A stretch of 64,000 bases of DNA, from IMG/VR virus record IMGVR_UViG_3300025128_000015, positions 62,001 through 126,000 of that record. One strand, 5' to 3'. A program made the position numbers and the translations under genes. The notes below the pieces were generated by a model, which saw only the letters and a program-made list of their open reading frames with translations, was not told the DNA's origin and did not search any database. Shown here piece by piece: positions 31,104-55,859 of the stretch. Position 1 is the first letter of the stretch, and each line of letters starts with the position of its first letter. This stretch comes from a virus.

Positions 31104-31277
31104 TTGAAACCGGGCGATCTTGTAGTGATACTATATGAAGCACGTAAATATTATCTTGCCATCGAGCCCATAGATTTGCTAGGCTATCCTGAGCAAAGAT
31201 GGGCGCTATTAGGACCAAAGGGAAACATAAGATATGTTGTTAGAGCAGAGATAAGGGTTGTAAATGAAAGCGGGTGA
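31104..31277 (+). CDS. MKVGDLV-family protein, copy 1
   Basis: 57 aa with a TTG start one base after the uvdE stop. Begins MKPGDLVVI and ends VVNESG. Its last 14 nt are the first 14 nt of the next copy, the overlap that links this family. Likely a small SH3-like beta-barrel; function unknown. Confidence 0.6.
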   Translation: MKPGDLVVILYEARKYYLAIEPIDLLGYPEQRWALLGPKGNIRYVVRAEIRVVNESG

Positions 31278-31479
31278 CCTTGTGAGAATCTATGACCCAG
31301 ACGAATCTCAACTGGATGGGCGCTCATACTCGGCCATCGGTTTACTGGTATCCATTGGATATAAAAGCTCGAACCCTGAGTCTTATCGAATATTTAATAT
31401 CTACTTGGATGGAAGTATTTCTTGGTTTGATGAGCCATATTGGGCTGCTGAAACTGTAAGCCCGGCCTTGACTGACTAG
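31264..31479 (+). CDS. MKVGDLV-family protein, copy 2
   Basis: 71 aa, beginning MKAGDLVRIYDPDE, with strands GLLVSIGY and RIFNIYLDG. Overlaps copy 1 by 14 nt. A promoter lies in its last codons. Confidence 0.7.
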   Translation: MKAGDLVRIYDPDESQLDGRSYSAIGLLVSIGYKSSNPESYRIFNIYLDGSISWFDEPYWAAETVSPALTD

Positions 31480-31495
31480 GTTTGGTTATTATATT
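31468..31495 (+). promoter_or_regulatory. Phage promoter
   Basis: TTGACT (31468-31473), 16-bp spacer, TATATT (31490-31495); the -35 lies in the end of copy 2. Leads into the membrane-peptide gene at 31514. Confidence 0.65.
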
Positions 31496-31513
31496 ATTTT
31501 TGTAGGAGGAAAC

Positions 31514-31606
31514 ATGTATAAAAAAAGAAAAGAAGCTGACAATCTTTTTATGACCTTGGTCGTTGCAGGCATTCTTGCTGTACTTAGCTACAACGCCGTA
31601 GTATGA
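31514..31606 (+). CDS. 30-aa membrane peptide
   Basis: A strong AGGAGG site precedes the ATG. A basic start (YKKRKEAD) is followed by the hydrophobic helix FMTLVVAGILAVLSY. It overlaps the next MKVGDLV gene by 4 nt. One of a set of tiny single-helix proteins in this region. Confidence 0.6.
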   Translation: MYKKRKEADNLFMTLVVAGILAVLSYNAVV

Positions 31607-31794
31607 AGCTCGGTGATTTGGTTAAGTGGCGCGACCCTGTGCCAAATCACCCTACTTGCCCTTCATTGTTCGGCTTGGTAGTAAGGCATCTAAAGCCCGG
31701 CTGGGTGAGTATCCATTGGTTTGCTGATGATGTGCCTGGTAACCCTACCCGCGAGCCTGTAATGCACTTAGAGATTATCAGTGAACATCGGTGA
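31603..31794 (+). CDS. MKVGDLV-family protein, copy 3
   Basis: 63 aa, beginning MKLGDLVKWRDP and ending EIISEHR, with Trp-containing strands (GWVSIHWF). The final 14 nt double as the start of copy 4. Confidence 0.7.
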   Translation: MKLGDLVKWRDPVPNHPTCPSLFGLVVRHLKPGWVSIHWFADDVPGNPTREPVMHLEIISEHR

Positions 31795-31963
31795 CGTTGT
31801 AATAGTAAAGCCGTTTTACGAAACCTTAGAGATTGTCGAAGGTTACGGCATCGTCTTAGACATATACGAAGATGATGATGGCTTTAGATGGTATAAGGTC
31901 AGGTTTGACCTTATTTTTGAATGGTTTGAAGACTACAAATTGGAGTTGATAAGTGAATCCTAA
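31781..31963 (+). CDS. MKVGDLV-family protein, copy 4
   Basis: 60 aa, GTG start, beginning MNIGDVVIV and ending LELISES, with an 'xGxVLDIYEDD' strand-turn typical of the family. Overlaps the next gene by 11 nt. Confidence 0.68.
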   Translation: MNIGDVVIVKPFYETLEIVEGYGIVLDIYEDDDGFRWYKVRFDLIFEWFEDYKLELISES

Positions 31964-32153
31964 ATGTATAGAATGTGATGAAGAATTTAATCCTAGACGA
32001 TATGAATTAGGTTATTATACTTGTATTGAGTGTGGAGAAGAAACTGCACAGAGAGAAATGTTGCGAAAATCAAAATGCATCGCACCTGCTTATAATAAAG
32101 GTGCATATATGTATGTGACAAGCTCACAAATGGCAAAAGATTTAGGAAGATGA
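31953..32153 (+). CDS. Small two-CxxC zinc-finger-like protein
   Basis: 66 aa, GTG start. CIECDEEF and CIECGEE give two CxxC pairs about 20 residues apart, a compact zinc ribbon. The rest is basic. It is embedded in the MKVGDLV chain and overlaps copies on both sides. Confidence 0.65.
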   Translation: MNPKCIECDEEFNPRRYELGYYTCIECGEETAQREMLRKSKCIAPAYNKGAYMYVTSSQMAKDLGR

Positions 32154-32335
32154 AAGTTGGTGACCTAGTATCGTGTATCTTTGATCCTGATGACGTTGGT
32201 ATCATTACGGATTGTTATGAATCTTTGTGTCTTGATGGCACTTATGAAGCGGTGGCCACTGTGCATTGGGTTCTTTTTAGGACGACAACACAGGAGCGTC
32301 TAGGTGACGGTTTGAAATTATTAAACAGTGTATAA
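32150..32335 (+). CDS. MKVGDLV-family protein, copy 5
   Basis: 61 aa, beginning MKVGDLVSCIFDPDDVGII and ending GLKLLNSV. The strand ATVHWVLF carries the family's conserved Trp. Overlaps the zinc-finger gene by 4 nt. Confidence 0.7.
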   Translation: MKVGDLVSCIFDPDDVGIITDCYESLCLDGTYEAVATVHWVLFRTTTQERLGDGLKLLNSV

Positions 32336-32350
32336 AAAGGAAAAAACATT

Positions 32351-32560
32351 ATGAAAATTATATTAATAGCTTTGTTCGCATGTCTATCTTTAGGTTGTGC
32401 AACATCAAGTGGTAAAAACTTCAGCAAAAAAGAAGTTCTCAACGACTTCGACCGAGCCTGGGATAGCTATTGGTCCAATAACCGTGAACGTTCTTGGTCC
32501 AAGTCATCACTGAAAAGAGATATCAAAAGGGTTAAGTTAAAATCTCCGCTTGAAAAATGA
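32351..32560 (+). CDS. Small predicted lipoprotein
   Basis: 69 aa. IILIALFACLSLGC is a signal peptide with lipobox LGC; the mature part is basic and Ser/Trp-rich (DRAWDSYWSNNRERSW). Probably membrane-attached in the periplasm. Its stop overlaps MKVGDLV copy 6. Confidence 0.65.
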   Translation: MKIILIALFACLSLGCATSSGKNFSKKEVLNDFDRAWDSYWSNNRERSWSKSSLKRDIKRVKLKSPLEK

Positions 32561-32754
32561 AAGTAGGTGACTTAGTAGAGTTTATGGATATGTCTTCCCA
32601 ACGCGACTCAAATGGCCGTAGAATCTTATTCCGTTCAGGTGTATACGGAATAGTCATTGGGAGGGACATTACCCGATCTTGGACTACTAGGTGGTTTGAT
32701 GGAGAAACAAGTTCGGACCCTGATTGGAGGCTAAGAGTGATTAGCGAGGTGTAG
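32557..32754 (+). CDS. MKVGDLV-family protein, copy 6
   Basis: 65 aa, beginning MKVGDLVEFMDM and ending LRVISEV. The core GVYGIVIGRD and TTRWFDGE keeps the family strands. ATG overlaps the lipoprotein stop. Confidence 0.7.
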   Translation: MKVGDLVEFMDMSSQRDSNGRRILFRSGVYGIVIGRDITRSWTTRWFDGETSSDPDWRLRVISEV

Positions 32755-32755
32755 A

Positions 32756-32920
32756 ATGGTAGATGGTTTAATAAGATTTTTGTTAGGATATATGGAGGAT
32801 GTAATCGTAAAAGCACGAGAAGAAAATCCTCACGTCTCCGTCATCATACAAAAGCATCTCGACGCGCTCAGAGAAGATTTGAATGAACATGATAAATTTT
32901 ATCCCATTGACGATAAATAA
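32756..32920 (+). CDS. Small hypothetical protein
   Basis: 54 aa, one base after copy 6. Amphipathic helices (GLIRFLLGYMEDVIVKA, then VIIQKHLDALRED). The final codons carry the -35 of the next promoter. Confidence 0.5.
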   Translation: MVDGLIRFLLGYMEDVIVKAREENPHVSVIIQKHLDALREDLNEHDKFYPIDDK

Positions 32921-32934
32921 GTTGTTCCTATAGT
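32907..32934 (+). promoter_or_regulatory. Phage promoter
   Basis: TTGACG (32907-32912), 16-bp spacer ending TTGTTCC, TATAGT (32929-32934), then TAAGTTGTAAT, the conserved initiation-region form. Confidence 0.7.
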
Positions 32935-32963
32935 TAAGTTGTAATCAGTGGATGGAGGACACT

Positions 32964-33749
32964 ATGTCTTGGAATGGAACTGTTAGATGCAGTTGGTGTG
33001 GACAGTCTGGTCATAATGCAGCAGGCTGCAAAGAAAAGCTTGAAAAAATGACAGGCTGGCTTGACAGCACCGATTTCGCAGAGCGCTCGCGAGCCACCAG
33101 ATACTTTGCGAAGAGAGGTCGAAAGGCTGAACGCGCTAAGAATCGTAGTTGTTCTTATTGCAGCGAGGTAGGACACACAAAGCGTACTTGCAAGGTGAGG
33201 AAGTCAGACATCTCTGTTTACGCGGAGATAATTTATGACGGACGGAAAAAGCTATACAAGTCTTTCCAAGAGAAAGGCTTCGGACCTGGTGCCCTTGTAT
33301 CCTACGAGGACAAAAGATGGTCCAGCGATACAGCCGAATACGTTACAGAAACGTATCTCGGCGTCGTCACGAGTGTCGAGCATGACGAATTGTCGCATAG
33401 AATTAATCACACACGATGGACCTGTAGCGACAGTAAATACGTTAAAGTGTCATGGATCAACCACCCTGCTGGTGGTATGAAATCGTGGCCCGCTTCTTTG
33501 CCTCTGCGCGCTATCGACGTTAAGAATCAATACTCGGATAGTTATAAGATAGAAGAAGTTGATTGGTCCCTGACTGACAGTGCAAGAATGAGGATTATTA
33601 CACCATTAGAAGACCCCGCACTAGCGTACCCTTCAATGTCTTCCTGTGAAAAGCTGGCATCGAAAATGTTAGATGAATCAGGAAAAGAGCGATGGAGAAT
33701 GCCATACGATTTGGAGGAGGAACTAGGCAAGAGGGGAGTGAAGGTGTGA
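32964..33749 (+). CDS. Double zinc-knuckle (CCHC) protein
   Basis: 261 aa from the ATG at 32964, 6 nt after GGAGG. Two CCHC knuckles are plain: CSWCGQSGHNAAGC and CSYCSEVGHTKRTC, separated by a basic linker. Then comes a beta-rich middle, including GFGPGALVSYEDKRW, which recalls the GxLV turn of the MKVGDLV proteins. CCHC knuckles usually bind single-stranded nucleic acid and are rare in phages. Likely RNA or ssDNA binding; function inferred only. Confidence 0.75.
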   Translation: MSWNGTVRCSWCGQSGHNAAGCKEKLEKMTGWLDSTDFAERSRATRYFAKRGRKAERAKNRSCSYCSEVGHTKRTCKVRKSDISVYAEIIYDGRKKLYKSFQEKGFGPGALVSYEDKRWSSDTAEYVTETYLGVVTSVEHDELSHRINHTRWTCSDSKYVKVSWINHPAGGMKSWPASLPLRAIDVKNQYSDSYKIEEVDWSLTDSARMRIITPLEDPALAYPSMSSCEKLASKMLDESGKERWRMPYDLEEELGKRGVKV

Positions 33750-33844
33750 AAAAGTTTATCGAAGAATTAAGAGATATCTTTTCACATGTTCTACGTGTGT
33801 GTATTTTTGCCTTGTTTCTCATTTTTTGCTATCCCATGTTCTGA
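33746..33844 (+). CDS. 32-aa membrane peptide
   Basis: GTG start overlapping the previous stop, behind GGGGAG. An amphipathic start (KKFIEELRDIFSHVL) leads into CIFALFLIFCYP, a single membrane helix. Confidence 0.5.
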   Translation: MKKFIEELRDIFSHVLRVCIFALFLIFCYPMF

Positions 33845-33850
33845 TTTTCC

Positions 33851-33878
33851 TTGTCTAGTGTTTTGCCGTGCTTATAGT
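33851..33878 (+). promoter_or_regulatory. Phage promoter
   Basis: TTGTCT (33851-33856), 16-bp spacer ending CGTGCT, TATAGT (33873-33878), then TAAGATGTAAC. Confidence 0.8.
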
Positions 33879-33908
33879 TAAGATGTAACTGATTAATGGA
33901 GTCGAAAT

Positions 33909-34523
33909 ATGACTGACAAGATCAAGAATCGGATTGAAAAGCTCTCGAAAGAGGAAATGTTATCTAACTGGGAGCATGGCTTTCTTGAATCTCTCCTTAA
34001 ATGGACTGAAAAGGGTAATCATTTATCACACCGTCAAAACACTACACTTCAAAACATTGAAGCCAAATATAGTGACGACAAGAAAGCTGCCCTGGAAGCC
34101 TGGAAAGGAAACTATACGTCAGAGATGCGAGAAAACATGACCATCATGGCTCATTATTATATCAATAATCCTCCCTATTTCGGAGATGTTGCCCGTCGTG
34201 TGATGAGCGATAAAGAAGACGCCTTTATTCCTTCAGAAAAGGTATATCGCGCCATGTGTGAAAACAAGTATGCTGCCCGCGTTATTGAAATCGTAAAGAC
34301 AACTCCCTTGTTTGAAGTCGGCTCGATGGCTAATGTACGAGCCAATGCCGGCGGTCATGCGTCACAATTCAAAAACAAAATGGTAATGATCTTGGAACAT
34401 GACTTAAATAATATAGTTTCTGCCGCGAAAGACGCCCGGCCAGTTCATGTTATTCCTGTGGGCTCGTCGAAGTCTTTCTGGACTGAAGAAAGATATTTGA
34501 AAAAAGCTAAAAAAGTTAGTTGA
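33909..34523 (+). CDS. Hypothetical helical protein
   Basis: 204 aa. Mostly helical, with an N-terminal charged region and a conserved-looking end (VHVIPVGSSKSFWTEERYLKK). No recognised family. It has its own promoter, and the next promoter's -35 overlaps its stop. Confidence 0.6.
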   Translation: MTDKIKNRIEKLSKEEMLSNWEHGFLESLLKWTEKGNHLSHRQNTTLQNIEAKYSDDKKAALEAWKGNYTSEMRENMTIMAHYYINNPPYFGDVARRVMSDKEDAFIPSEKVYRAMCENKYAARVIEIVKTTPLFEVGSMANVRANAGGHASQFKNKMVMILEHDLNNIVSAAKDARPVHVIPVGSSKSFWTEERYLKKAKKVS

Positions 34524-34547
34524 CCAAAGATAATTGGTTCCTATCTT
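34520..34547 (+). promoter_or_regulatory. Phage promoter
   Basis: TTGACC (34520-34525), 16-bp spacer ending TGGTTCC, TATCTT (34542-34547), then AATAGTGTAGAC. Confidence 0.75.
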
Positions 34548-34601
34548 AATAGTGTAGACAGAAACAATGAACATTAACCTAGTTACTCAAGGAGATGTAA
34601 C

Positions 34602-35666
34602 ATGGCCATCGATTTCAAAACATTTAATCAAGTTGCCCCGCATGTCGCGGCAGTCCACAAGCCTGTTCTTCTACGGGGACGCCACGGCGTCGGCAAATCC
34701 GAAGTTGTATACCAGCTAGCTGTCCAGCTTGATAAGCCAGTCGTCGAACGACGTGCCTCACAAATGACCGAGGGCGACTTGGTTGGTCTTCCTAAGACCG
34801 ATGGGGACGTAACCTCCTTTTGTCCTCCTGATTGGTTTCAGACGGCATGTGATAACGCGGTCGTGCTCTTCTTTGATGAAGTTGACCGTGCTGTCACCGA
34901 GGTTCGTCAGGGTCTATTCGAGCTAACAGATTCGCGTAAGCTGTTTGGTAATCATCTCCATCCCGATACTGTCATCGTTGCTGCAATCAACGGCGGCGAC
35001 CACGGTTCACAATATCAGGTTGGCGAGATGGACCCTGCCGAGCTTGACCGATGGACCGTCTTTGATGTCGAGCCTACGATTGAAGATTGGCTTGATTGGG
35101 CGAAGGCTAACGTCGATGGTGTCGTTTGGGACTTTATCAATCAGAATCGATCTCACTTAGAGCATCAGACTGACTTCGAGCCTAACAAGGTTTACCCTTC
35201 TCGTCGCTCTTGGAAACGTCTCAACGACTGCCTAGCACACGCTGGCTTCCTGTCCGATGATGCTGATAAGTCTTCGGTATATCATCTGGCGACTGCATTC
35301 GTCGGCTTCGAGGCTGCTGTGTCCTTCAACGACTTCGTTCAAAACTATGAACGTCAAGTGACCGTTAAGATGATTCTTGATGAGGGCAAGATTAATAAAA
35401 CGTCTAACTTCGGTATCAACGAGCATTGCGCCCTGATTGAGAAAATCGAAGCTAGTGATACTTTCACCACCGTATTAGCAGAAAATCAGGTTCAGAACTT
35501 GGCTAACTACTTCGTAACTTTGCCATCTGAACCCGCGATGAAGCTGTGGACTGCTATCGGCAAGGGTGTAAATGAAAATGTGATTGCACTGCACAAGTCT
35601 AAGGCTGACGATGGCACTAAGATTTCAACTCGCATGGTTACCATGCTTACCGGAAAAAATGAATAG
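34602..35666 (+). CDS. MoxR-type AAA+ ATPase
   Basis: 354 aa. Walker A GRHGVGKS at 26-33, Walker B VVLFFDEVDR at 86-95, and sensor region VIVAAINGG with Arg-finger candidates in AELDRW. MoxR ATPases work with VWA-domain partners as chaperones that insert metal or remodel complexes. The next gene encodes such a VWA protein, so the two form a MoxR-VWA pair on separate promoters. Its phage role is unknown; control of host or phage complexes is a guess. Confidence 0.88.
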   Translation: MAIDFKTFNQVAPHVAAVHKPVLLRGRHGVGKSEVVYQLAVQLDKPVVERRASQMTEGDLVGLPKTDGDVTSFCPPDWFQTACDNAVVLFFDEVDRAVTEVRQGLFELTDSRKLFGNHLHPDTVIVAAINGGDHGSQYQVGEMDPAELDRWTVFDVEPTIEDWLDWAKANVDGVVWDFINQNRSHLEHQTDFEPNKVYPSRRSWKRLNDCLAHAGFLSDDADKSSVYHLATAFVGFEAAVSFNDFVQNYERQVTVKMILDEGKINKTSNFGINEHCALIEKIEASDTFTTVLAENQVQNLANYFVTLPSEPAMKLWTAIGKGVNENVIALHKSKADDGTKISTRMVTMLTGKNE

Positions 35667-35687
35667 CTATGACTACCATATAATGAA

Positions 35688-35783
35688 GCCGTTCAACGCC
35701 TGTCCTGAATGGCATAAAACGGAGTAGAAAGCAGGCTGGGCTAGGTTGTCGGCCCGACGAGATGACCCTATTCGTTTTTTTTT
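35688..35783 (+). ncRNA. Candidate pseudoknotted RNA between the MoxR and VWA genes
   Basis: GCCGTTC (35688-35694) pairs with GAATGGC (35707-35713), and the loop sequence GCCTGT (35698-35703) pairs with GCAGGC (35731-35736), giving an H-type pseudoknot. A small GTCG/CGAC hairpin and a nine-T run (35775-35783) follow. It may be a riboswitch-like attenuator or a small RNA with its terminator. No known class was recognised. Confidence 0.5.
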
Positions 35784-35794
35784 CTAAGCACCCC

Positions 35795-35822
35795 TTGACG
35801 ATTGTTGAGGGGTGCTTATCTT
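35795..35822 (+). promoter_or_regulatory. Phage promoter inside an inverted repeat
   Basis: TTGACG (35795-35800), 16-bp spacer ending GGTGCT, TATCTT (35817-35822). AAGCACCCC (35786-35794) and GGGGTGCTT (35809-35817) bracket the spacer, a possible operator. Confidence 0.75.
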
Positions 35823-35857
35823 TCTAGTGTAAGACAACTACTTATTAAGGGAGCATC

Positions 35858-37069
35858 ATGTTCAACCTTAACGATCATATCTTTCGCCTACTTCAAGACG
35901 AACCTTTCTTTGCATCTTTATCGCGCAATGTGGATAAGACAGAAGATTCTAATGTTCCAACGGCCGGAGTGCGTATCAACCCTGATACTGGGTTCTTTGA
36001 GTTGTTATACAACCCTGAGTTCTTCGAGGGCCTAGAGACTGACAAACAACGTGCAGGTGTGCTAGTACATGAGTTTTATCACCTTGTGATGGAACATATT
36101 ATCGGACGCCTTCCTGACGAATTGTCAGGCATCTTTGAGAACCAGGTTGACCCCGAGAAGCAATCGCTTTTTAAATTATACAATATTGCCGCAGATTTAT
36201 CTATCAACTGCCATATTGGACGTGAGAACTTACCTGAGAATGGCTGCTTCCCTGGTCATGGACACTTCGAGGACTTTGAGCCATTCAAGACGGTTGAGTT
36301 TTATTATGAAAAGCTGAAGGAAAAGGCCGAACAAGAGCAGAAAGATGGTAAGACTGAAGGCGGCGTCGGTGATATGGACTCCTTCGATGACCATAGTCAA
36401 TGGGGTGGAAAGGCTTGTGACACAGCGACTAAAGAGATTGCTAAACAGCGATTGACAGAGGCTGTTAAGAAAGCTGCCGAAGATGCATCGAAGTCTAGCT
36501 CATGGGGTTCAGTGTCCGCTTCTATGAAAAAAGAAATTATGGACCGTATCACTCCAGTCTTAGACTGGCGCAAGGTGCTACGTTACTTCGTCAAGTGCTC
36601 TCAGAGGGCTGAAAAACGCTCTACAGTGAAGCGACTCAATAAGCGCTACCCTTACGTCCATCCCGGTCGTAAAGTCCGTAGGCAGGCGAGTATTGCCATC
36701 TCTATCGACCAATCTGGCTCGGTGTCTGACAATATGTTAGCTTCGTTCTATTCTGAACTTAACAAACTAGCTGAAATTGCTACTTTTACCGTCGTACCTT
36801 TTGATACCGAGGTTGCAAAAGACAAGGTGTATGAGTGGCGTAAAGGTGAAAATCGAAAGCGCGAACGTGTCCTGTACGGTGGCACTTGCTTCGATGCTCC
36901 TACTGAGTATGTCAATGCTGGTGGCTTTGATGCTCACATCGTCTTGACCGACATGTGCGCGCCTAAGCCTAAATCTAGCCGATGTCCTCGAATGTGGATG
37001 ACGGACGCGGAAAACGCTCGCCGCCCGTACTTCAAAACTAACGAGCGAGTGATTGCAATAACAAAGTGA
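35858..37069 (+). CDS. VWA-like protein with putative metallopeptidase motif (DUF2201-type)
   Basis: 403 aa. HEFYH at residues 71-75 lies in a putative metallopeptidase domain, followed by a charged linker and a C-terminal VWA-like domain with the MIDAS motif D284-Q-S-G-S. This two-part layout matches the DUF2201 group, usually encoded beside a MoxR ATPase, as here. The pair probably acts together on a metal-dependent or assembly step. It is the best clue to a defined two-gene system in the accessory region. Confidence 0.85.
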   Translation: MFNLNDHIFRLLQDEPFFASLSRNVDKTEDSNVPTAGVRINPDTGFFELLYNPEFFEGLETDKQRAGVLVHEFYHLVMEHIIGRLPDELSGIFENQVDPEKQSLFKLYNIAADLSINCHIGRENLPENGCFPGHGHFEDFEPFKTVEFYYEKLKEKAEQEQKDGKTEGGVGDMDSFDDHSQWGGKACDTATKEIAKQRLTEAVKKAAEDASKSSSWGSVSASMKKEIMDRITPVLDWRKVLRYFVKCSQRAEKRSTVKRLNKRYPYVHPGRKVRRQASIAISIDQSGSVSDNMLASFYSELNKLAEIATFTVVPFDTEVAKDKVYEWRKGENRKRERVLYGGTCFDAPTEYVNAGGFDAHIVLTDMCAPKPKSSRCPRMWMTDAENARRPYFKTNERVIAITK

Positions 37070-38420: not shown

Positions 38421-38585
38421 ATGAAAGTCGGTGACAAAGTAGAACATATTAACAAGCCTGAATACGGTATCGGCAAGATTGTGAGATTCTACGCGAATCA
38501 AAGCACGGTGCTGGTCGAGTTTCCAGATGATAAAGGCTTGTCTTATTGCGATTATCACTCTTTGGTGAAGAAAAAAAGTCGGTGA
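38421..38585 (+). CDS. MKVGDLV-family protein, copy 7
   Basis: 54 aa, beginning MKVGDKVEHINKPEYGIGKI and ending VKKKSR. Its final AAAGTCGGTGA is a remnant of the family's start sequence, as if a following copy had been lost or had drifted. Confidence 0.68.
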   Translation: MKVGDKVEHINKPEYGIGKIVRFYANQSTVLVEFPDDKGLSYCDYHSLVKKKSR

Positions 38586-38587
38586 TT

Positions 38588-38668
38588 GTGGAATACTTTA
38601 TTATTAACAACGCAGCTATTGTAATGGTTGTTGGAATGCTTTTGTTTTTCAAAGGAAAAAATAAATGA
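38588..38668 (+). CDS. 26-aa membrane peptide
   Basis: GTG start without a clear ribosome site. One hydrophobic helix (IVMVVGMLLFF) and a basic end; its stop overlaps the ATG of copy 8. Confidence 0.4.
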   Translation: MEYFIINNAAIVMVVGMLLFFKGKNK

Positions 38669-38820
38669 AAATCGGTGACTTGGTAAAATATGTAACAGGT
38701 TGCATTAGTGTAGTTTTATATATTAATGATGCTGGTGGGACTGTGAAAGTTGTTAGCAACACCGGAAACATCTGCTGGCTAGTTACTTCTGATTGCGAGG
38801 TTATAAGTGAAAGTCGGTGA
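38665..38820 (+). CDS. MKVGDLV-family protein, copy 8
   Basis: 51 aa, beginning MKIGDLVKYV and ending CEVISESR. The shared last 14 nt (GTGAAAGTCGGTGA) start copy 9 in another frame. Two Cys lie in the body. Confidence 0.7.
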   Translation: MKIGDLVKYVTGCISVVLYINDAGGTVKVVSNTGNICWLVTSDCEVISESR

Positions 38821-38995
38821 TTTAATTGAGTATGATGATGGTTCGGTGGGAATTGTTACAAGCGCACCATATAGTGCATTTAATGGTCAAGTGAGCGTCG
38901 TCAATGTTTTGTGGCAGGGCTCCGACAAGCCGTCAAAGATGGACATAACAGCCATTAAGAGCGGCATTGTGAGGGTGGTTGATGAAAGTCGGTGA
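38807..38995 (+). CDS. MKVGDLV-family protein, copy 9
   Basis: 62 aa, GTG start, beginning MKVGDLIEYDDGSVGIV and ending VRVVDESR. The strand VNVLWQGS has the family Trp. Overlaps copies 8 and 10 by 14 nt each. Confidence 0.72.
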   Translation: MKVGDLIEYDDGSVGIVTSAPYSAFNGQVSVVNVLWQGSDKPSKMDITAIKSGIVRVVDESR

Positions 38996-39149
38996 CTTAG
39001 TTAAGCGTGACGCTTGGCCGGCGCATTATTATCAAATCATAGAAATCTATGATAACCAGTACCGCGCAAAAAGGCTGTGTCTCTTGAATTTGACGACTGG
39101 TAGATATGCTACTGATATACAACCGTCACATGTAAAAGTGTTGAGCTAA
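38982..39149 (+). CDS. MKVGDLV-family protein, copy 10
   Basis: 55 aa, beginning MKVGDLVKRDAWPAHYY and ending VKVLS. It overlaps copy 9 by 14 nt. Its stop shares one base with the ATG of copy 11 (TAATG). Confidence 0.7.
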   Translation: MKVGDLVKRDAWPAHYYQIIEIYDNQYRAKRLCLLNLTTGRYATDIQPSHVKVLS

Positions 39150-39349
39150 TGAAGGTCGGTGATTTGGTACAGCTTCAAAGAGGCACGCGGAAACATTGGG
39201 ATCTACCTACAGGTATTGCCCTACTGGTCGAAAAGCTACCGCGAAATGATAGCTTAGAATATGATTGGAAGGTTTTGGTTGATGGTCGTAACATCGAACT
39301 TGGTAGGCAGCTAGAGCAATCGGCGGAGGTCATCAGTGAAAGTCGGTGA
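39149..39349 (+). CDS. MKVGDLV-family protein, copy 11
   Basis: 66 aa, beginning MKVGDLVQLQRG and ending AEVISESR. Core strands TGIALLVEKL and DWKVLVDG. Overlaps copy 12 by 14 nt. Confidence 0.72.
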   Translation: MKVGDLVQLQRGTRKHWDLPTGIALLVEKLPRNDSLEYDWKVLVDGRNIELGRQLEQSAEVISESR

Positions 39350-39506
39350 TTTGATATATCACAAGTGGGGTAAAGACTGTGGCATTGTGGTCGGACGTCC
39401 CGATCCAGCGACACAACCGCCGCCGAACAACTGGTATGTAATGTTCGGCACTAAAAGAGTGATGGTTCATGAGATAAGCTGCGAGGTCTTAAATGAAAGT
39501 CGGTGA
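39336..39506 (+). CDS. MKVGDLV-family protein, copy 12
   Basis: 56 aa, GTG start, beginning MKVGDLIYHKWGKDCGIVV and ending CEVLNESR, with WYVMFG as the Trp strand. Overlaps both neighbouring copies by 14 nt. Confidence 0.72.
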   Translation: MKVGDLIYHKWGKDCGIVVGRPDPATQPPPNNWYVMFGTKRVMVHEISCEVLNESR

Positions 39507-39648
39507 CTTGGTAAAAGATAAGCTATGGGGAGAGTTGGGCATAGTAGTCTGTGTACCTCCAATGCCTTCTATGATAGAAGTTTGCTGGACTGGAGAAAAG
39601 CCCAGAAGACAAAAGCATCTCTTGGGAGATCTTGAAGTTCTGCGATGA
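39493..39648 (+). CDS. MKVGDLV-family protein, copy 13
   Basis: 51 aa, beginning MKVGDLVKDKLWGELGIVV, with IEVCWTGEKP as the Trp strand and an LEVLR end. Last member of the unbroken chain. Confidence 0.72.
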   Translation: MKVGDLVKDKLWGELGIVVCVPPMPSMIEVCWTGEKPRRQKHLLGDLEVLR

Positions 39649-39684
39649 TATTACAGAATTGGTTGGAGAATAAAGTTAAAACAA

Positions 39685-39693
39685 CTATTTATT
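39685..39693 (+). promoter_or_regulatory. Candidate late-promoter motif CTATTTATT
   Basis: It lies 22 nt before the leader-type gene at 39715 and within a small hairpin ACAACTA/TAGTTGT (39681-39701). Confidence 0.4.
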
Positions 39694-39714
39694 GTAGTTG
39701 TTAGGAGAACTAAA

Positions 39715-39924
39715 ATGAAAATCACAAAAACACAACTTAAGCAGATTATCAAAGAAGAGTTGGATACTGCTTTAAAGGATCCTCGTACTGACGAACTCGA
39801 AGCCGCTTTAGAAGTATCGTATAATACAAACCTCGATCCAGAAGAAGCAGCGGCTGATATATTAACAGTGGTTGAGGAGTTCCTGTCTGCCAAGCTCGGT
39901 ATGCCCATAGAATTGAGATATTAG
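39715..39924 (+). CDS. Small protein with type A virion-leader module
   Basis: 69 aa. MKITKTQLKQIIKEELD is the clearest form of the leader found on many proteins in the 45.8-55.6 kb block. The rest is acidic helix (EEAAADILTVVEEFL). Together with its CTATTTAT motif this suggests a late, possibly capsid-internal protein that sits inside an early-type region. Confidence 0.65.
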   Translation: MKITKTQLKQIIKEELDTALKDPRTDELEAALEVSYNTNLDPEEAAADILTVVEEFLSAKLGMPIELRY

Positions 39925-39936
39925 AACGGAGGCTAA

Positions 39937-40128
39937 ATGAAAGTCGGTGACTTGGTAAAAATAGTTGAATACGCTTCGCGTCATACTCCTCTTGGTACAG
40001 TGGGAATAATCACTAAGAAGCTACCCAAACCCTACCCGCATGAACGTTATCACCAGTGTTATGAGGTCCGCTTCAACAATGGATACACCGGCAATCATGC
40101 TAATTTTTGTTTGGAGCTTTTGAAATAA
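39937..40128 (+). CDS. MKVGDLV-family protein, copy 14
   Basis: 63 aa, beginning MKVGDLVKIVEYAS, with GTVGIITKKLPKP as a core strand and CYEVRFNNGY. GGAGG precedes the ATG. Confidence 0.72.
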   Translation: MKVGDLVKIVEYASRHTPLGTVGIITKKLPKPYPHERYHQCYEVRFNNGYTGNHANFCLELLK

Positions 40129-41388: not shown

Positions 41389-41595
41389 ATGAAGTATAAC
41401 ATACGAGATTTGGTTACTTTACGCGGACGGCCAGATCCGCTTGGTTTCATCACAAAATTAAAAGGCTCAACAGCTTTTGTTTTATGGTGGCCAACGTCAA
41501 AAAAACCGCAGCACAAGACGTTCTGTGATGTTGAACGCCTGATTGTCATGCAATCGTCACAAGTTAAACGAGGACGTCCCAGGAAAAAGAAGTAA
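41389..41595 (+). CDS. MKVGDLV-like protein with C-terminal AT-hook
   Basis: 68 aa, beginning MKYNIRDLVTLRGRPD and ending KRGRPRKKK. The body matches the SH3-like family (FITKLKGSTAFVLWWP), and the RGRP core in basic residues is an AT-hook, which binds the minor groove of AT-rich DNA. This is the best hint that the family may bind nucleic acid. Confidence 0.65.
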   Translation: MKYNIRDLVTLRGRPDPLGFITKLKGSTAFVLWWPTSKKPQHKTFCDVERLIVMQSSQVKRGRPRKKK

Positions 41596-43186: not shown

Positions 43187-43267
43187 ATGCTTGTTGAAGG
43201 TATTATCGTTTTAAGTATTCAGTTAATTCTTAGCCTAGCTACTTGGCAGTTTCTTGCGAGGTCATAA
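43187..43267 (+). CDS. 26-aa membrane peptide
   Basis: Direct product of the promoter at 43119, with AAGAGG upstream. Nearly all of it is one helix (IIVLSIQLILSLATWQFL). It ends one base before MKVGDLV copy 15. Confidence 0.58.
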   Translation: MLVEGIIVLSIQLILSLATWQFLARS

Positions 43268-43486
43268 ATGAAAACAGGCGACTTAGTAAAATTAAAGCAA
43301 CCGACGACGAGAGACTTCAAAGAGGTCTTTCTAATTGTCGACACCTTGCAACTCGGTCCAGGCGCTCGCGCTACTTATGGCGAGGAAGGGTCTAATTGGT
43401 TAAAGTTGGAAGGTCGAGAAGGTTGGTATACTAGCGGATGGACACGATCCGCAGATTACGAGGTAGTAAGTGAAAGTGGGCGATAA
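43268..43486 (+). CDS. MKVGDLV-family protein, copy 15
   Basis: 72 aa, beginning MKTGDLVKLKQPTTRDF and ending YEVVSESGR. Overlaps copy 16 by 17 nt, a longer form of the usual overlap. Confidence 0.7.
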   Translation: MKTGDLVKLKQPTTRDFKEVFLIVDTLQLGPGARATYGEEGSNWLKLEGREGWYTSGWTRSADYEVVSESGR

Positions 43487-43727
43487 GGTAAAACTAGTAG
43501 GCAAGACAAAGCACGGCAAGAATCGTGTACGTGAGCAAGGCCATGATTGGGTCGTTGTAAAGACATCCAACAATTTAGCGTTTGCCGATAACCGCGAACA
43601 AGAGTTCGCACTTTTACGCGCCAAAGAACGGCCTCATGAGCATTGGCGATGGGTCGCCGTACAAAATGATAAGAACTTTCTCGTTGAGGTATTAACCAAT
43701 GATAATGAGAGGTTAGAAGGTGCGTAA
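43470..43727 (+). CDS. MKVGDLV-family protein, copy 16
   Basis: 85 aa, GTG start, beginning MKVGDKVKLVGKTKHGKN; strands DWVVVKTSN and WVAVQNDKNFLVEVL. Its stop lies within the first of the GTGCGTAA repeats. Confidence 0.68.
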   Translation: MKVGDKVKLVGKTKHGKNRVREQGHDWVVVKTSNNLAFADNREQEFALLRAKERPHEHWRWVAVQNDKNFLVEVLTNDNERLEGA

Positions 43728-50536: not shown

Positions 50537-50545
50537 CTATTTATT
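50537..50545 (+). promoter_or_regulatory. Candidate late-promoter motif CTATTTATT
   Basis: It lies 19 nt before the leader-type gene at 50565, in an ACACTATTTATTATATAAGG context. Confidence 0.42.
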
Positions 50546-50564
50546 ATATAAGGAAATTATCACA

Positions 50565-51194: not shown

Positions 51195-51195
51195 T

Positions 51196-51438
51196 TTAAT
51201 CGGTATTCCTTACTATACTTACAACCTCTAAGCTTTTTGGGTTACACCAGACAATACCTACTTTAAAAAAGTATACTTCAATGATTATTGTTTCTGGTTC
51301 TGTTTCCATAAAATCCCAGACGTCGATATCAATAATAATTCCTAAATCATTCCAACGTTCTTTTGGAGCGTTTAAATTATCATAAAGATTTTCGTCTTGA
51401 TTGAATCTTGTCCACCTAACCATGTCGCCTACTTTCAT
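51196..51438 (-). CDS. MKVGDLV-family protein, copy 17 (minus strand)
   Basis: 80 aa, beginning MKVGDMVRWTRFNQDENLYD, with strands DLGIIIDIDVWDF and TIIIEVYFF. It is a member of the accessory-region family placed alone and reversed among late-type genes, probably a moved-in copy. Confidence 0.7.
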   Translation of the reverse strand: MKVGDMVRWTRFNQDENLYDNLNAPKERWNDLGIIIDIDVWDFMETEPETIIIEVYFFKVGIVWCNPKSLEVVSIVRNTD

Positions 51439-51531
51439 ATTAATAACTAGGCATGAAAGCAATAGATCGTGTCTTTTAAGGCATGTATAAGATTTAAGTT
51501 CTAATTATTATTAAAGGTGAGACTACAAATT

Positions 51532-51699: not shown

Positions 51700-52031
51700 C
51701 GAGATGGCCGTTTCTTTTTTCCTTTCTTATTAGAAAACTTCTTATTTGGTTTCTTGTGTGGTTTCTTGACTTTTACTCTAGGCTTATAAAATCTTATGCT
51801 TCTGTTGTATGTCTTGTATTTTCCACGATAATTTCTAATATGCTTACGATATATGTATCTACTAGATACAACCTTCATCTTATATGGTAAATAAACATAT
51901 GTTCCATAAAGATTATCATAATAAACATAAGCCGGCTTCGTTGTATAAGAAACGCTAGGCGTCAAGGTGGCGAAACAACCGGTTAAGGTAAATACTAAAA
52001 CAAGAACAACAGATAATAAACGTTTTTTCAT
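51696..52031 (-). CDS. Basic predicted lipoprotein (minus strand)
   Basis: 111 aa. LLSVVLVLVFTLTGC is a signal peptide with lipobox TGC. The mature protein is Tyr-rich and then strongly basic (RVKVKKPHKKPNKKFSNKKG). AGGAG precedes the start. Reversed orientation and odd composition suggest an inserted cargo gene, possibly surface-exposed in the host. Confidence 0.68.
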   Translation of the reverse strand: MKKRLLSVVLVLVFTLTGCFATLTPSVSYTTKPAYVYYDNLYGTYVYLPYKMKVVSSRYIYRKHIRNYRGKYKTYNRSIRFYKPRVKVKKPHKKPNKKFSNKKGKKKRPSR

Positions 52032-52126
52032 TTTGTTCTCCTGTTCATAGCAAAAGTATAGTTACTTTTTTTTAAAAGTAAAGGAATTTCTTTAACTAAT
52101 TATATGGGAAAGGAGATAATAAGAAT

Positions 52127-52852
52127 ATGATTTTATCTGAAGCCCACGTAGAAGTTTTTGTCTTAGAAGAAATGATTAAACTTCTCGGAGAATATTCTGA
52201 TCTTGAAGAAGAATTTATTAAAAGAAAAAAAGGTGGTGCGTTTGATCCAGCAACGTTTTCAAGCGATGTATCTCCAGAAGAAGTTGAAAAAGCTTTTAGA
52301 GCGCAAAATATAGAAAAAGGTATGTCTCCTGAAGCAGCAAGAGAATATGCTAAAGCGCAAGTTAAAGCAAGAACTGCCAAGAGCGAAGAGCCCACAGAAG
52401 AAGTTCCTGAAATTGGAGCGTCCGTCGAAGGTGGTAGTGAAATGGGCGGTGGATCTCAAGAAGGTAGAATGCAAAAATGGTCTGACCGGTCAGAGGAATT
52501 GATGAACCTAGAAAATTTGTTTACTATCGACAATTCTTTCCGAAATGCAATTGCAGAATTAAGCAAAACCACTAGTGGAGAACCGACAAGCGACGAACCT
52601 TCTTATATGCTAGCAACAGCATTATTAGGTCTCGTCGAGCAAGTGCCTGGCGAGCCAAATACAAATGAAGAAAAAGTTAGAGAATGGTTGGTTAATTATT
52701 TGCCCGCAGGACAAAATAAAGATATGACAATACAAAGAATAATTTATTATATGTCCCGAGCAGCTAGCTCAAAACCCACATATAACCAAGTTTGGGCTGC
52801 ACAGAAGGGTGTCCTTGACTTTCTCTCTCAAAGGGCTTCTAGGGGCGTCTAA
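52127..52852 (+). CDS. Hypothetical protein of the late block
   Basis: 241 aa. An acidic N-terminus (VFVLEEMIKLLGEYSDLEEE) with a leader-like helix, a Glu/Lys-rich middle (VSPEEVEKAFRAQNIEKGMS), then a helical C-terminal domain. AAAGGAG upstream. No family is recognised. Confidence 0.6.
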   Translation: MILSEAHVEVFVLEEMIKLLGEYSDLEEEFIKRKKGGAFDPATFSSDVSPEEVEKAFRAQNIEKGMSPEAAREYAKAQVKARTAKSEEPTEEVPEIGASVEGGSEMGGGSQEGRMQKWSDRSEELMNLENLFTIDNSFRNAIAELSKTTSGEPTSDEPSYMLATALLGLVEQVPGEPNTNEEKVREWLVNYLPAGQNKDMTIQRIIYYMSRAASSKPTYNQVWAAQKGVLDFLSQRASRGV

Positions 52853-52889
52853 ACAGTACTGTGGTGAATTTAAAACAAAGAGGAAACTA

Positions 52890-53174
52890 GTGGCTAAAAG
52901 AAAAGTTGGATTTGGGGCACTCCTAGAAGAATTAGAACAGGAAGAAGAAGTATATATTCCTAAATCTTATATTGTATGTCCCGCGTGCAAAGACGAATTT
53001 AGATCTGATGAATGTCCGCAGAAAGAAGATGAAAAGATATTCTGTTCCTGTGGTAATTTAGAATTTGGCTGCATTGAAGGCGACGGACATCCGTGTAGAA
53101 TTGGATCCAAAGGCGGATTCACAACTGTTAAGTATAAAACAGTTTATCCTAAATTTATCGATAAGAACATCTAG
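52890..53174 (+). CDS. Zinc-binding small protein
   Basis: 94 aa from the GTG at 52890 (AGAGGA upstream). CPACKDEFRSDECP and CSCGNLEFGC form a four-Cys zinc site, followed by beta strands. It is probably a structural zinc ribbon, role unknown. Confidence 0.65.
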   Translation: MAKRKVGFGALLEELEQEEEVYIPKSYIVCPACKDEFRSDECPQKEDEKIFCSCGNLEFGCIEGDGHPCRIGSKGGFTTVKYKTVYPKFIDKNI

Positions 53175-53177
53175 ATA

Positions 53178-53186
53178 CTATTTAGA
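53178..53186 (+). promoter_or_regulatory. Candidate late-promoter motif CTATTTAGA
   Basis: It lies 36 nt before the leader-type gene at 53223 and matches the copy at 17780. Confidence 0.35.
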
Positions 53187-53222
53187 TTATAAGACTTTTT
53201 ATTCACCGCGGAGATAAAAAAC

Positions 53223-53867
53223 ATGAAGTTAACAGAAAACGTTTTAAAACAAACAATTAGAGAAGTTATTAGTGAACTTCTAGAAGAAGACAAGCCAAAG
53301 CCGGCAAGAGGCCCAAAGGAAGCAAGTGAATTTTTAAAAACAGTGACTGACGCTGCCAAAGAAGCTGATAAATCTGGAAAAGAACAAAGAAAAGTGGCTA
53401 GCCCAGCGCGAAAGAAAGTTAAAGAAGATATCGACGAAGTAAGTGGCGTACCTGTTGCTAAAGATGATGACTTTGATCCTCTCGCTGCGTCTGAAGCCCT
53501 AGACAAAGTTGCCGGGGTTGATGATGTAAAAGCATTAGACGTCGGACCTGTTAATGAAAAACTTTCTGATAAGCAGTCTAAAAATATGGACAAAGATGAC
53601 GATGGCGATATTGACGCAAAAGATTTAAAAGCTCTTCGTAATCGTAAGTCAAAAAAGAAAGGTGATGTTTCTGAACAAGAAATGCCAGACCCTGAGCTTC
53701 CGAAAGTTCCTGACGTTAAAACAGAAGTGCCTGCTGCAGAAAAAATGACTCCTCCAAAAGCTCCGGCTGGTCAACAAACAACGACTCCTATGTCTTTAAA
53801 AGAGCATGCTTCGGCCAAGCACAATCGCATTTTTGAATCCTTAGTTAAGAGTATTACAAAGAAATAA
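53223..53867 (+). CDS. Leader-type protein with EF-hand-like loop
   Basis: 214 aa. MKLTENVLKQTIREVISELL leader, then an acidic, Lys-rich disordered body and the loop DKDDDGDIDAKDLKALR, which has the DxDxDGxI spacing of calcium-binding EF-hand or dockerin loops. Pro-rich stretch near the C-terminus. Probably a virion-associated protein. Confidence 0.65.
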   Translation: MKLTENVLKQTIREVISELLEEDKPKPARGPKEASEFLKTVTDAAKEADKSGKEQRKVASPARKKVKEDIDEVSGVPVAKDDDFDPLAASEALDKVAGVDDVKALDVGPVNEKLSDKQSKNMDKDDDGDIDAKDLKALRNRKSKKKGDVSEQEMPDPELPKVPDVKTEVPAAEKMTPPKAPAGQQTTTPMSLKEHASAKHNRIFESLVKSITKK

Positions 53868-53877
53868 GGAATCTAGT

Positions 53878-55620
53878 ATGAAAATTGATACTAAACGTTT
53901 AGATCATATCATTGAAGAAGTGTTGGAAGAAGTTATTTCTGAGCAATCCTTTGTTCGTGACGGCGACGACGCGACATTGGACCGAATTAATAAGCAAAGA
54001 ACACCTGTATCCGTGGAGCCGGTAAAGGCGCCTGAATGGGCTGAGATGTATTTTAAATCCAATCCAGGTTTAAGAGAAAAATACACAAAAGCCTATTCAG
54101 ATCCAAATTTTAGAGCAAGAGCAGACGCGCACGATGCTAAAGTTATAGCAAATAATAAAAAATATGCACTCAACAAGAAGAAAGGAAATGTAACGATCCG
54201 ACAACCTCAATTAACTTCTGTACAGTTGATGGGAAATAAGGTTCTTGATGATTGGTATAAAAACACTTCGCCAGAAGATCGAGCAATGAAAGATTACTCC
54301 GGAAATCCATCTGCACGAGCCAAGTTTTATAAAAAAATGGAAAAAAGAGCCAAGGAGAAAGGTGGAAATTTAGATGTATCAAAGCTGGGCGATGATGATG
54401 TTTACGGCGACGGGGGAACACTGGGACTCACACCAGACGCTGCTCCTGGTACATGGGATGATCCACTTGGTTATAAAGGACAGACTCAATTTAAATTTCA
54501 AAAAGATATTGTAGGCAAACCTGGTGAAAAAATAGATTCTGAAAGATTAAAACGTCGATCAAAAGATTTCGAAGGATTTCATGCCGGCGACTTAAATATA
54601 AGCCCTGAGATGGCCGGAACAATTGAAGATGTTGGTACGTTTATACTTCCAACAAACGCATTAGAGGCTGTAATTAGCCTTGTGCCTTTCGGAAAATTGT
54701 TCGGACTCGTTGGTAAACAGGGAACAAAGATTGCGGAAAAAGAAGTCGCAAAAGAACTTGTAAGCCAAGGTGTTGATAAAGCTGTAGCTCAAAGAATTGC
54801 AAAAGCACGTATGGATTATTTTGCAAAAGAAGCTGCTGAAAAGGCCGCTGCTAAGAAACTTGCAACAAAGGGTGGAATAAAGCCTGGTGGAGTTTTAAGT
54901 CCGTCGTCGCGGCTATCTCAAAAGCCTCCAAAGCCTGGATTTTTAGGAAGATCAAAAGTTGAAATACAAGATATGACTAAAAATCTCAAGAATTTTGCAT
55001 CTAAATATTTAGGACCAGAAACTGTTAATAAAGCAATGAGAAATGCTAGTGGTAAAGGCTTTAAAGAAGGAGCCAAAGGATTTGCAAAGGGACTTGCTGG
55101 ACAGTTGCATCCAATGCATCGATTATTTGGATCTAGCTGGCATGGTGCGCCAATGACATATGTTTTAGCTAAAATATATAATGCACAGAAAGGATCAAAA
55201 TTTGACCAAGAAGATCTTGGGGAACTTAGAGATATACTTGGGCTAAAAACTTTGGCAGATGTAGAGCGAGCGATGATAAACAGCGACAAAGAAGTAAGAA
55301 AACAAAATAAAGAAGCGTATGAATTAGATCGAAAGCTTATGAGAGGCGGATCCACGGCGGATAGAAGTACTGATATAATTATCGACGGCCTTATAAATTC
55401 CGGAATGGTTAATACAATTGATTCTTATAATATTAATGTAATGAGAGAACTTATAAAAAGCATGAAATCAAATCCTGCATATGGAAGTAGTAGAGTTAAG
55501 TTTCCCACGGAAGAAGAATTTATTAAAGCTCTAAAAGCTAAAGGCATTAAATTAGATATCGACACTCCATTAGTTAAAGAGCACATTGTCAACTTAGTAA
55601 TGGAAACTCTCGGGTATTAA
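53878..55620 (+). CDS. Large leader-type virion protein candidate
   Basis: 580 aa. It starts MKIDTKRLDHIIEEVLEEVI, a type A leader variant. Near residue 256 is a hydrophobic stretch, LPTNALEAVISLVPFGKLFG, that could insert in a membrane, followed by Ala/Lys-rich helices. The C-terminus (LVKEHIVNLVMETLGY) again resembles the module. It may be an internal or ejected virion protein, inferred from layout only. Confidence 0.65.
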   Translation: MKIDTKRLDHIIEEVLEEVISEQSFVRDGDDATLDRINKQRTPVSVEPVKAPEWAEMYFKSNPGLREKYTKAYSDPNFRARADAHDAKVIANNKKYALNKKKGNVTIRQPQLTSVQLMGNKVLDDWYKNTSPEDRAMKDYSGNPSARAKFYKKMEKRAKEKGGNLDVSKLGDDDVYGDGGTLGLTPDAAPGTWDDPLGYKGQTQFKFQKDIVGKPGEKIDSERLKRRSKDFEGFHAGDLNISPEMAGTIEDVGTFILPTNALEAVISLVPFGKLFGLVGKQGTKIAEKEVAKELVSQGVDKAVAQRIAKARMDYFAKEAAEKAAAKKLATKGGIKPGGVLSPSSRLSQKPPKPGFLGRSKVEIQDMTKNLKNFASKYLGPETVNKAMRNASGKGFKEGAKGFAKGLAGQLHPMHRLFGSSWHGAPMTYVLAKIYNAQKGSKFDQEDLGELRDILGLKTLADVERAMINSDKEVRKQNKEAYELDRKLMRGGSTADRSTDIIIDGLINSGMVNTIDSYNINVMRELIKSMKSNPAYGSSRVKFPTEEEFIKALKAKGIKLDIDTPLVKEHIVNLVMETLGY

Positions 55621-55859
55621 GCTTCAGATAATATATGCAAATGGTTACATAACATAAGTGAGTCTGGTTCTCCTGAAGCTTCTCTATCCCAGATTAACCA
55701 TTCTATTTCTGCAAACTCTCGGTTGTCTTCTGTTTCAAAAACAGTCATGATAATTCCCATGTTAAGTTTCCAATTATCGTCAGGTATACCACCAATAACC
55801 GTATTAATTTTATTGAAGGTATACATTGACCTGACCGTAACTAAGTCGCCTCTCTTCAT
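55617..55859 (-). CDS. MKVGDLV-family protein, copy 18 (minus strand)
   Basis: 80 aa, beginning MKRGDLVTVRSMYTFNKI, with LNMGIIMTVFETED and FAEIEWLIWD strands. Convergent with the large leader protein, overlapping its stop by 4 nt. Like copy 17 it sits alone among late genes. Confidence 0.7.
   Translation of the reverse strand: MKRGDLVTVRSMYTFNKINTVIGGIPDDNWKLNMGIIMTVFETEDNREFAEIEWLIWDREASGEPDSLMLCNHLHILSEA

What the first reader, a model, noticed from the sequence alone, without database searches (positions are those of the whole stretch)
31104..55859. Expanded family of at least 18 MKVGDLV mini-proteins
Eighteen proteins of 50-85 aa begin MK(V/I/A/L/P/T)GDLV or close variants: 31104, 31264, 31603, 31781, 32150, 32557, 38421, 38665, 38807, 38982, 39149, 39336, 39493, 39937, 43268, 43470, and on the minus strand 51196 and 55617. 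After the start they diverge strongly, keeping only a GIV strand, a VxW strand and often an EVISESR end. This is paralogue expansion of a likely SH3-like barrel. A relative at 41389 ends in an AT-hook, hinting at DNA binding. So many divergent copies in one phage suggests an arms race or multi-target inhibitors.
Basis: partly seen in the sequence, partly recalled or inferred. Interest (0 to 1): 0.85.

Follow-up and report, generated by a model that had tools for sequence, protein, structure and literature searches.

The report
Shuffled phage mini-gene cassette array
A large uncultured tailed phage carries a set of about 19 tiny, very different proteins with a shared barrel-like fold, packed as overlapping gene cassettes that related phages gain, lose and swap precisely at one short shared DNA junction, which looks like a ready-made way of re-assorting small proteins that probably act on the host.

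Summary
In detail: all 18 ORFs exist at the stated coordinates, and a 19th lies outside the window in the same 189.6-kb virus record. The number is far above chance. Two copies from different subfamilies model as five-stranded SH3-like barrels.

One claimed protein motif is mostly something else. The 'EVISESR' end is the Shine-Dalgarno site, start codon and first codons of the NEXT gene, read in another frame across a 14-nt overlap. Unrelated upstream genes end the same way.

About 120 other viral-contig stretches carry the same junction and about 1,000 such genes. All 22 large records tested hold 9-25 copies. Homologous cassettes lose DNA similarity at the junction and rarely keep their neighbours, unlike ordinary genes nearby. 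One window cassette is 94% identical to a copy in a phage whose backbone genes are only 67-71% identical. Purifying selection acts on the proteins.

Best reading: an array of SH3-like binding modules, re-assorted by recombination at a coding stop-start junction, probably serving host takeover or counter-defence. The architecture is well supported; the targets are inferred and untested.

The parts
31104..31277 (+). family gene 1 (TTG start, 57 aa), overlaps the next gene by 14 nt
   Evidence: absent from relative L130
31264..31479 (+). family gene 2 (71 aa)
   Evidence: orthologue L130:5414, 59% aa, pN 0.25 / pS 0.91
31603..31794 (+). family gene 3 (63 aa), overlaps the next gene by 14 nt
   Evidence: orthologue L130:5757
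31781..31963 (+). family gene 4 (GTG start, 60 aa); modelled as an SH3-like barrel, pLDDT 91.7
   Evidence: dN 0.11 / dS 2.1 against L130
32150..32335 (+). family gene 5 (61 aa)
32557..32754 (+). family gene 6 (65 aa)
38421..38585 (+). family gene 7 (54 aa); its KKKSR end reads a dead junction (fossil of a lost or replaced next cassette)
   Evidence: near-identical to L130:12573 up to GAAAGTCGGTGATT, then unrelated DNA; the next start codon is not present here
38665..38820 (+). family gene 8 (51 aa), 14-nt overlap with the next
38807..38995 (+). family gene 9 (GTG start, 62 aa), 14-nt overlap with the next
38982..39149 (+). family gene 10 (55 aa), 1-nt overlap with the next (TAATG)
39149..39349 (+). 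family gene 11 (66 aa), 14-nt overlap; 82% aa to L078:1769
39336..39506 (+). family gene 12 (GTG start, 56 aa), 14-nt overlap
39493..39648 (+). family gene 13 (51 aa); modelled as an SH3-like barrel, pLDDT 84; 94% DNA identity to a cassette in a distant phage
39937..40128 (+). family gene 14 (63 aa)
   Evidence: L078:1049-1232 at 79% DNA
43268..43486 (+). family gene 15 (72 aa), 17-nt overlap with the next (GGC instead of GGT moves the stop by one codon)
43470..43727 (+). family gene 16 (GTG start, 85 aa; divergent MKVGDKV subfamily)
51196..51438 (-). isolated family gene 17 (80 aa), no junction
55617..55859 (-). isolated family gene 18 (80 aa), no junction
38791..38821 (+). reference junction: Shine-Dalgarno GAGGT, start GTG, MKVGD codons; read in another frame the same DNA is EVISESR and the stop of gene 8
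   Evidence: (repeat family D4)
39320..39350 (+). junction between genes 11 and 12
39477..39507 (+). junction between genes 12 and 13
43454..43484 (+). junction between genes 15 and 16
43252..43267 (+). half junction (TGCGAGGTCATAA) before gene 15 with no family gene upstream: probable remnant of a lost cassette

Best explanation
The window holds three groups (6, 8 and 2 genes) plus two isolated copies of a family of 51-85 aa proteins with a Tudor/KOW-like SH3 barrel. Each tandem gene is a cassette. It starts at a conserved DNA junction of about 30 nt (GAGGT-n5-RTGAAAGTCGGTGAY-TTGGT) and ends by running into the next copy of that junction. The junction does four jobs: it gives the upstream protein its last strand residues and stop codon in one frame, supplies the ribosome binding site and start of the next gene, encodes the first turn and strand of the next barrel, and gives a stretch of near-identical DNA at many boundaries (shown from sequence). 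Recombination between any two junctions therefore keeps both reading frames intact (follows from the sequence). The array gains, loses and swaps whole cassettes between phages (shown by comparison). The phage's own RecA/UvsX-like, gp32-like and SbcCD/gp46-47-like proteins probably carry this out (genes shown, role inferred). The barrels most likely act as small protein- or nucleic-acid-binding modules that each bind a different host target early in infection, for host takeover or counter-defence (inferred). The shuffling would then let a phage lineage re-sort its repertoire.
For: 18 genes in place, motif far above permuted controls. Overlap of exactly 14 nt in 6 of 15 adjacent window pairs, in 17 of 32 adjacent pairs of four loci found through a different gene, and in 492 of 1,012 genes overall. 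Wobble positions at the start are fixed as DNA: Val3 is GTC in 79% of overlapped copies and 58% of solitary ones, against 20% in gene bodies; solitary copies still use GGT 72% against 30%. DNA identity of homologous cassettes with unlike neighbours falls from about 85% to about 27% just upstream of the start, and to about 35% within 10-15 nt after the stop. Gene order: cassette pairs at 70-79, 80-89 and 90-99% aa identity keep a homologous family neighbour in 12, 24 and 19% of cases, ordinary genes of the same loci in 52, 78 and 100%. Cassette 39493 is 94% identical in DNA to one on a contig whose MoxR/VWA genes are 67-71% identical. Fossil junctions. Fold. Purifying selection: pN 0.02-0.36 against pS 0.21-0.91 in 8 orthologue pairs. 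Recombination genes.
Against: No target, expression timing or phenotype is known. Fold matches are weak in E-value (best 0.037 PDB, 0.0018 viral), partly because the barrels are small. Only two of 18 copies were modelled. Most loci were collected with the junction pattern, so their overlap frequencies are inflated; the unbiased figures are 6 of 15 and 17 of 32. The same comparative pattern would arise if cassettes were copied by illegitimate recombination with selection only for intact frames. The dispersed promoter-like element sits directly before only one of the groups (43268), so early expression is not established.
Confidence: 0.6

Rival explanations
1. Plain tandem duplication followed by divergence inside one phage lineage; the shared start is leftover homology and the overlap is ordinary gene packing.
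For: Copies sit in tandem on one strand and share their 5' ends; phages pack genes tightly.
Against: Many window copies are closer to copies in other phages than to each other. Similarity ends at the junction on both sides. Neighbours are shuffled far more than ordinary genes. A cassette is much younger than the phage backbone around it.
Confidence: 0.1
2. The junction is conserved only as an efficient translational restart (ribosome binding site plus start codon context). Mosaic breakpoints fall there merely because other breakpoints destroy genes.
For: The junction contains a good Shine-Dalgarno with suitable spacing, and stops in two or three frames. Selection for intact genes alone can place breakpoints at gene borders.
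Against: GTC at codon 3 and GGT at codon 4 are kept beyond start-context needs, also in copies with no overlapping upstream family gene. Matches of 24-43 nt at 81-97% identity link junctions of different phages.
Confidence: 0.3
3. The proteins are nucleic-acid or RNA-polymerase binders (KOW, UvrD-Tudor and NusG-like) that tune transcription, rather than multi-target inhibitors.
For: The PDB fold list holds NusG/Spt5 KOW, UvrD/PcrA Tudor and RapA. T4 MotB, a DNA-binding early protein, is predicted to have an N-terminal KOW domain (PMC7827196). The AT-hook neighbour 41389 is conserved.
Against: Net charge varies from -10 to +4 in the window with a mean of -0.9 over 947 proteins, so there is no common nucleic-acid surface. 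One common target would not need 9-25 unlike copies.
Confidence: 0.3
4. Mostly neutral 'ORFanage' filler: selfish mini-gene cassettes that persist because they are easily copied and cost little.
For: High turnover, open-ended diversity (645 clusters at 50% identity among 1,028), and some copies with internal stops.
Against: Purifying selection on orthologues and conserved fold residues.
Confidence: 0.15

Closest known systems
Tudor / KOW / SH3-like small beta-barrels (NusG and Spt5 KOW, PcrA/UvrD Tudor, HspQ/YccV, PetP, MutS2 MSSS, DUF1918, DUF2158)
   Same: Five short strands with a GD turn before strand 1; fold and weak profile matches
   Different: No member passes any curated Pfam cut-off that was checked for window copies; stand-alone 51-85 aa; arranged as arrays
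T4 MotB (KOW domain plus OB fold; PMC7827196)
   Same: Small phage protein with a predicted SH3-like/KOW domain, from a non-essential region, early expressed
   Different: Single two-domain protein conserved in T-even phages, not an array of divergent single-domain copies
Phage SPO1 host takeover module (26 genes; PMC6873191)
   Same: Cluster of mostly small genes, many acting on host machinery
   Different: In the passages read, the genes are not described as one fold family and no shared recombination junction is described; role here is by analogy only
Early anti-defence regulons of archaeal viruses (PMC11065993)
   Same: Many diverse small accessory genes sharing a conserved DNA element at their starts
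   Different: There the element is a promoter and the proteins are mostly unrelated; here it is a coding stop-start junction and the proteins share a fold
Gene cassettes of integrons (from general knowledge)
   Same: Interchangeable small genes joined at a conserved site
   Different: No integrase or attC-like site was looked for; the junction is coding DNA at both ends

Membership tests
SH3-like small beta-barrel (fold level) | five-stranded barrel in a 50-80 aa domain | tested here: met
   AF2 models of two subfamilies, pLDDT 84.1 and 91.7; five strands complete in 31781, last strand reduced in 39493
SH3-like small beta-barrel (fold level) | structural match to solved members | tested here: inconclusive
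   top hits are nearly all SH3-like, TM (query) about 0.5-0.77, probability mostly about 1.0, but E 0.037-0.05 at best
SH3-like fold in all 18 copies | sequence signal beyond the shared start | tested here: inconclusive
   significant as a group (p = 1.4e-7), not for most single copies
Named Pfam families (HspQ/YccV, DUF3553, PcrA_UvrD_tudor, DUF1918, KOWx_SPT5) | score above curated cut-off | tested here: not met
   window copies all below cut-off; 40 relatives give only scattered weak hits, best E 0.0021
PHROG families | significant hit of window copies | tested here: not met
   best E 0.022 for ten window copies; scattered hits to 9 unknown-function families among 40 relatives
Anti-defence / defence protein families (PADLOC) | profile match | tested here: not met
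   one weak hit among 40; the library holds defence proteins and few inhibitors
Phage host-takeover module | early expression and effect on host | not testable with these tools
   no expression data; nine-copy promoter-like element confined to the same region
Recombining cassette array | breakpoints at a shared site and loss of gene order | tested here: met
Integron cassette | attC site and integron integrase | not tested
   not searched for

The most novel reading that the evidence does not exclude
A phage-borne diversity system: a coding stop-start junction serves at once as ribosome binding site, barrel start, stop codon and homology site, so that cassettes of a single small fold can be re-assorted freely among phages, giving each genome a changing panel of 9-25 binders against host targets, comparable in role to a repertoire locus.
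Probability: 0.35. Interest if true: 0.85.

Novelty: new variant of a known kind. Interest (0 to 1): 0.68.

Why it matters
Large phages carry hypervariable stretches of tiny unknown genes. Here one such stretch resolves into a single fold family with a visible rule for its variation. This gives a sequence handle (the junction) that pulls out about a thousand such proteins from viral contigs, and a concrete testable claim: that coding overlaps can act as frame-safe recombination sites. If the barrels bind host proteins, the arrays are a ready library of small natural inhibitors. It also shows how an apparent conserved protein end (EVISESR) can be the shadow of the next gene's start, a trap for profile-based family building.

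Tried and rejected
EVISESR as a functional tail: rejected. An ESR-type end is present in 94% of copies with the 14-nt overlap, 1% of copies with another overlap and 15% without a following family gene, and it also ends apparently unrelated proteins (L093, L071). General DNA binding: not supported on charge. 41389 as a family member: not supported. Family in cultured phages: tblastn of one copy and of a consensus found nothing at E up to 1 in 50,697 records, and no near DNA match exists. Profile scan of genome contigs could not be run with the alignment; the junction pattern found 12 stretches there, several in MAG contigs rich in family genes, others probably chance. In-frame fusions of two copies: none found. 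Literature: six searches for a description of such arrays found none. A Pfam call failed on wrong coordinates and was repeated.
Full report
What is there. The window is bases 62001-126000 of a 189,594-bp virus record. The record codes for a terminase large subunit, portal, contractile tail sheath, RecA/UvsX-like, gp32-like and SbcCD/gp46-47-like proteins, i.e. a large T4-type tailed phage. All 18 ORFs of the finding are present; a 19th is at record 135157-135348. Permuted motifs occur 0 or 1 times in the same ORF set, against 13 for GDLV and 19 for the relaxed form. The genes lie in groups of six (31104-32754), eight (38421-40128) and two (43268-43727), plus two isolated copies on the minus strand.

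The end motif is the next gene. Reading the DNA at the borders shows ...GAG GTT ATA AGT GAA AGT CGG TGA... = E V I S E S R stop. In another frame the same bases are GAGGT (ribosome binding site), then GTG AAA GTC GGT GA. = M K V G D of the next gene. The overlap is 14 nt. Among 1,012 family genes in 133 loci, 492 overlap the next family gene by exactly 14 nt and 52 by 4 nt. These loci were mostly chosen by the junction pattern, so the unbiased figures matter: 6 of 15 adjacent pairs in the window, and 17 of 32 in four loci found through the neighbouring VWA-domain gene. The ESR-type end is found in 94% of 14-nt-overlap copies, 1% of copies with other overlaps, and 15% of copies with no family gene after them. 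Proteins that do not look like family members but stand before a junction end the same way (L093, 153-codon frame; L071, 96-codon frame). A last strand of the type LEV(I/V) is part of the fold and is also seen in isolated copies; the SESR part is the overlap.

The junction is conserved as DNA. Codon 3 (Val) is GTC in 79% of overlapped copies and 58% of solitary ones, while Val in gene bodies is GTC in 20%. Codon 4 is GGT in 72% of solitary copies against 30% in bodies (in overlapped copies it is fixed by the stop codon). Frame-0 stops directly before the start occur in 65% of overlapped copies. Isolated minus-strand copies use other codons but keep MKxGD(L/M)V, so there is a protein-level reason too.

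Cassettes move. For 226 homologous cassette pairs (65-99% aa identity, different loci), DNA identity is about 85% from the start codon inward but 27-30% upstream of the junction, and falls to about 35% within 10-15 nt after the stop. Immediate family neighbours are homologous in 12, 24 and 19% of pairs at 70-79, 80-89 and 90-99% identity. Ordinary genes of 100 aa or more in the same loci keep theirs in 52, 78 and 100%. Pairs are not independent, and the two tests differ slightly in coverage rule. Against its nearest relative L130, the window's two main groups have eight orthologous copies in the same order and six copies of their own, and lack three of L130's, although the intervening genes are collinear. 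Gene 38421 is nearly identical to L130 up to the junction, then the DNA is unrelated, and the next start codon is missing in the window: a fossil junction. Gene 39493 is 94% identical over 144 nt to a cassette of another phage; on the same contig the MoxR and VWA genes are only 67% and 71% identical to the window's. This is direct evidence of recent cassette exchange.

How widespread. By base count about one chance hit would be expected in a collection of that order (my estimate; the collection's exact size is not given). Twenty mononucleotide shuffles of the record gave none, against four in the real sequence. All 22 large records tested (158-293 kb) hold 9-25 profile matches at E up to 0.01. 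They were chosen because they hold a junction, so prevalence among phages in general is not measured. Clustering at 50% identity gives 645 clusters among 1,028 proteins, 452 of them singletons. Nothing was found in 50,697 annotated phage records.

Fold. AF2 gives five-stranded barrels for 31781 (pLDDT 91.7) and 39493 (84.1, last strand reduced). The two profiles align over their length at 99.4% probability. PDB matches are PetP, Tudor (53BP1, ERCC6-L2, UvrD), KOW (NusG, Spt5) and HspQ, all at weak E-values. Viral matches include many 53-80 aa phage proteins of unknown function. Weak Pfam hits point the same way; for window copies none passes its cut-off. Without the shared start and end the window copies score above shuffles as a group (p = 1.4e-7) but mostly not singly.

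Selection. Eight orthologue pairs with L130 have pN 0.02-0.36 and pS 0.21-0.91. Control genes have pN 0.02-0.27. The copies are real, constrained genes, evolving at the fast end. No sign of positive selection was seen, but synonymous sites are often saturated.

Function. What follows is inference. Many unlike copies of one small binding fold, variable charge (-10 to +4), fast turnover and protein constraint fit a set of binders with different targets. In phages that suggests host takeover or counter-defence. T4 MotB (predicted KOW domain, DNA-binding early protein, PMC7827196), the SPO1 host takeover module (PMC6873191) and the archaeal-virus early anti-defence regulons (PMC11065993) are analogies. 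A transcription-related role for some copies is a serious rival. Confidence is about 0.9 for the overlap explanation of EVISESR, 0.85 for cassette shuffling at the junction, 0.8 for an SH3-like fold in most copies, and 0.45 for host-directed binding with different targets.

Noticed in passing
32896, 33840, 40121, 40571, 41114, 41973, 42823, 43108, 43979 (+): A promoter-like element of about 55 bp (CCTTGTC-n17-TTAT..T.TAGgTGTAAC) occurs nine times, only between 32.9 and 44.0 kb of the window and nowhere else in the record; it stands before many small genes, including family gene 43268.
   Followed up: partly
39715-39924, 45781, 47460, 50565, 53223, 53878 (start coordinates): Several otherwise unlike proteins share the N-terminal prefix MKITKxxLxxIIxEE or close variants, as if a common leader or targeting segment.
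   Followed up: no
41389-41595 (+): Small protein with an AT-hook-like tail (KRGRPRKKK), kept in relatives L130 and L131; possibly SH3-like but not a significant member of the family.
   Followed up: partly
34602-37069 (+): MoxR-type AAA ATPase next to a DUF2201 metallopeptidase/VWA protein; PHROG labels the second as an HNH endonuclease, which Pfam does not support.
   Followed up: no
L145 (CP070664.1, candidate division WOR-3 chromosome): Seven profile matches in a MAG chromosome, six of them in two groups about 62-66 kb apart: a possible integrated or mis-assembled phage.
   Followed up: no
G021:142647-142808 and G019:15346-15513 (records of L040 and L113): Family copies with one internal stop codon, probably decaying cassettes.
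   Followed up: no
35785-35818 (+): Strong terminator-like hairpin (15 pairs) just before the VWA gene.
   Followed up: no
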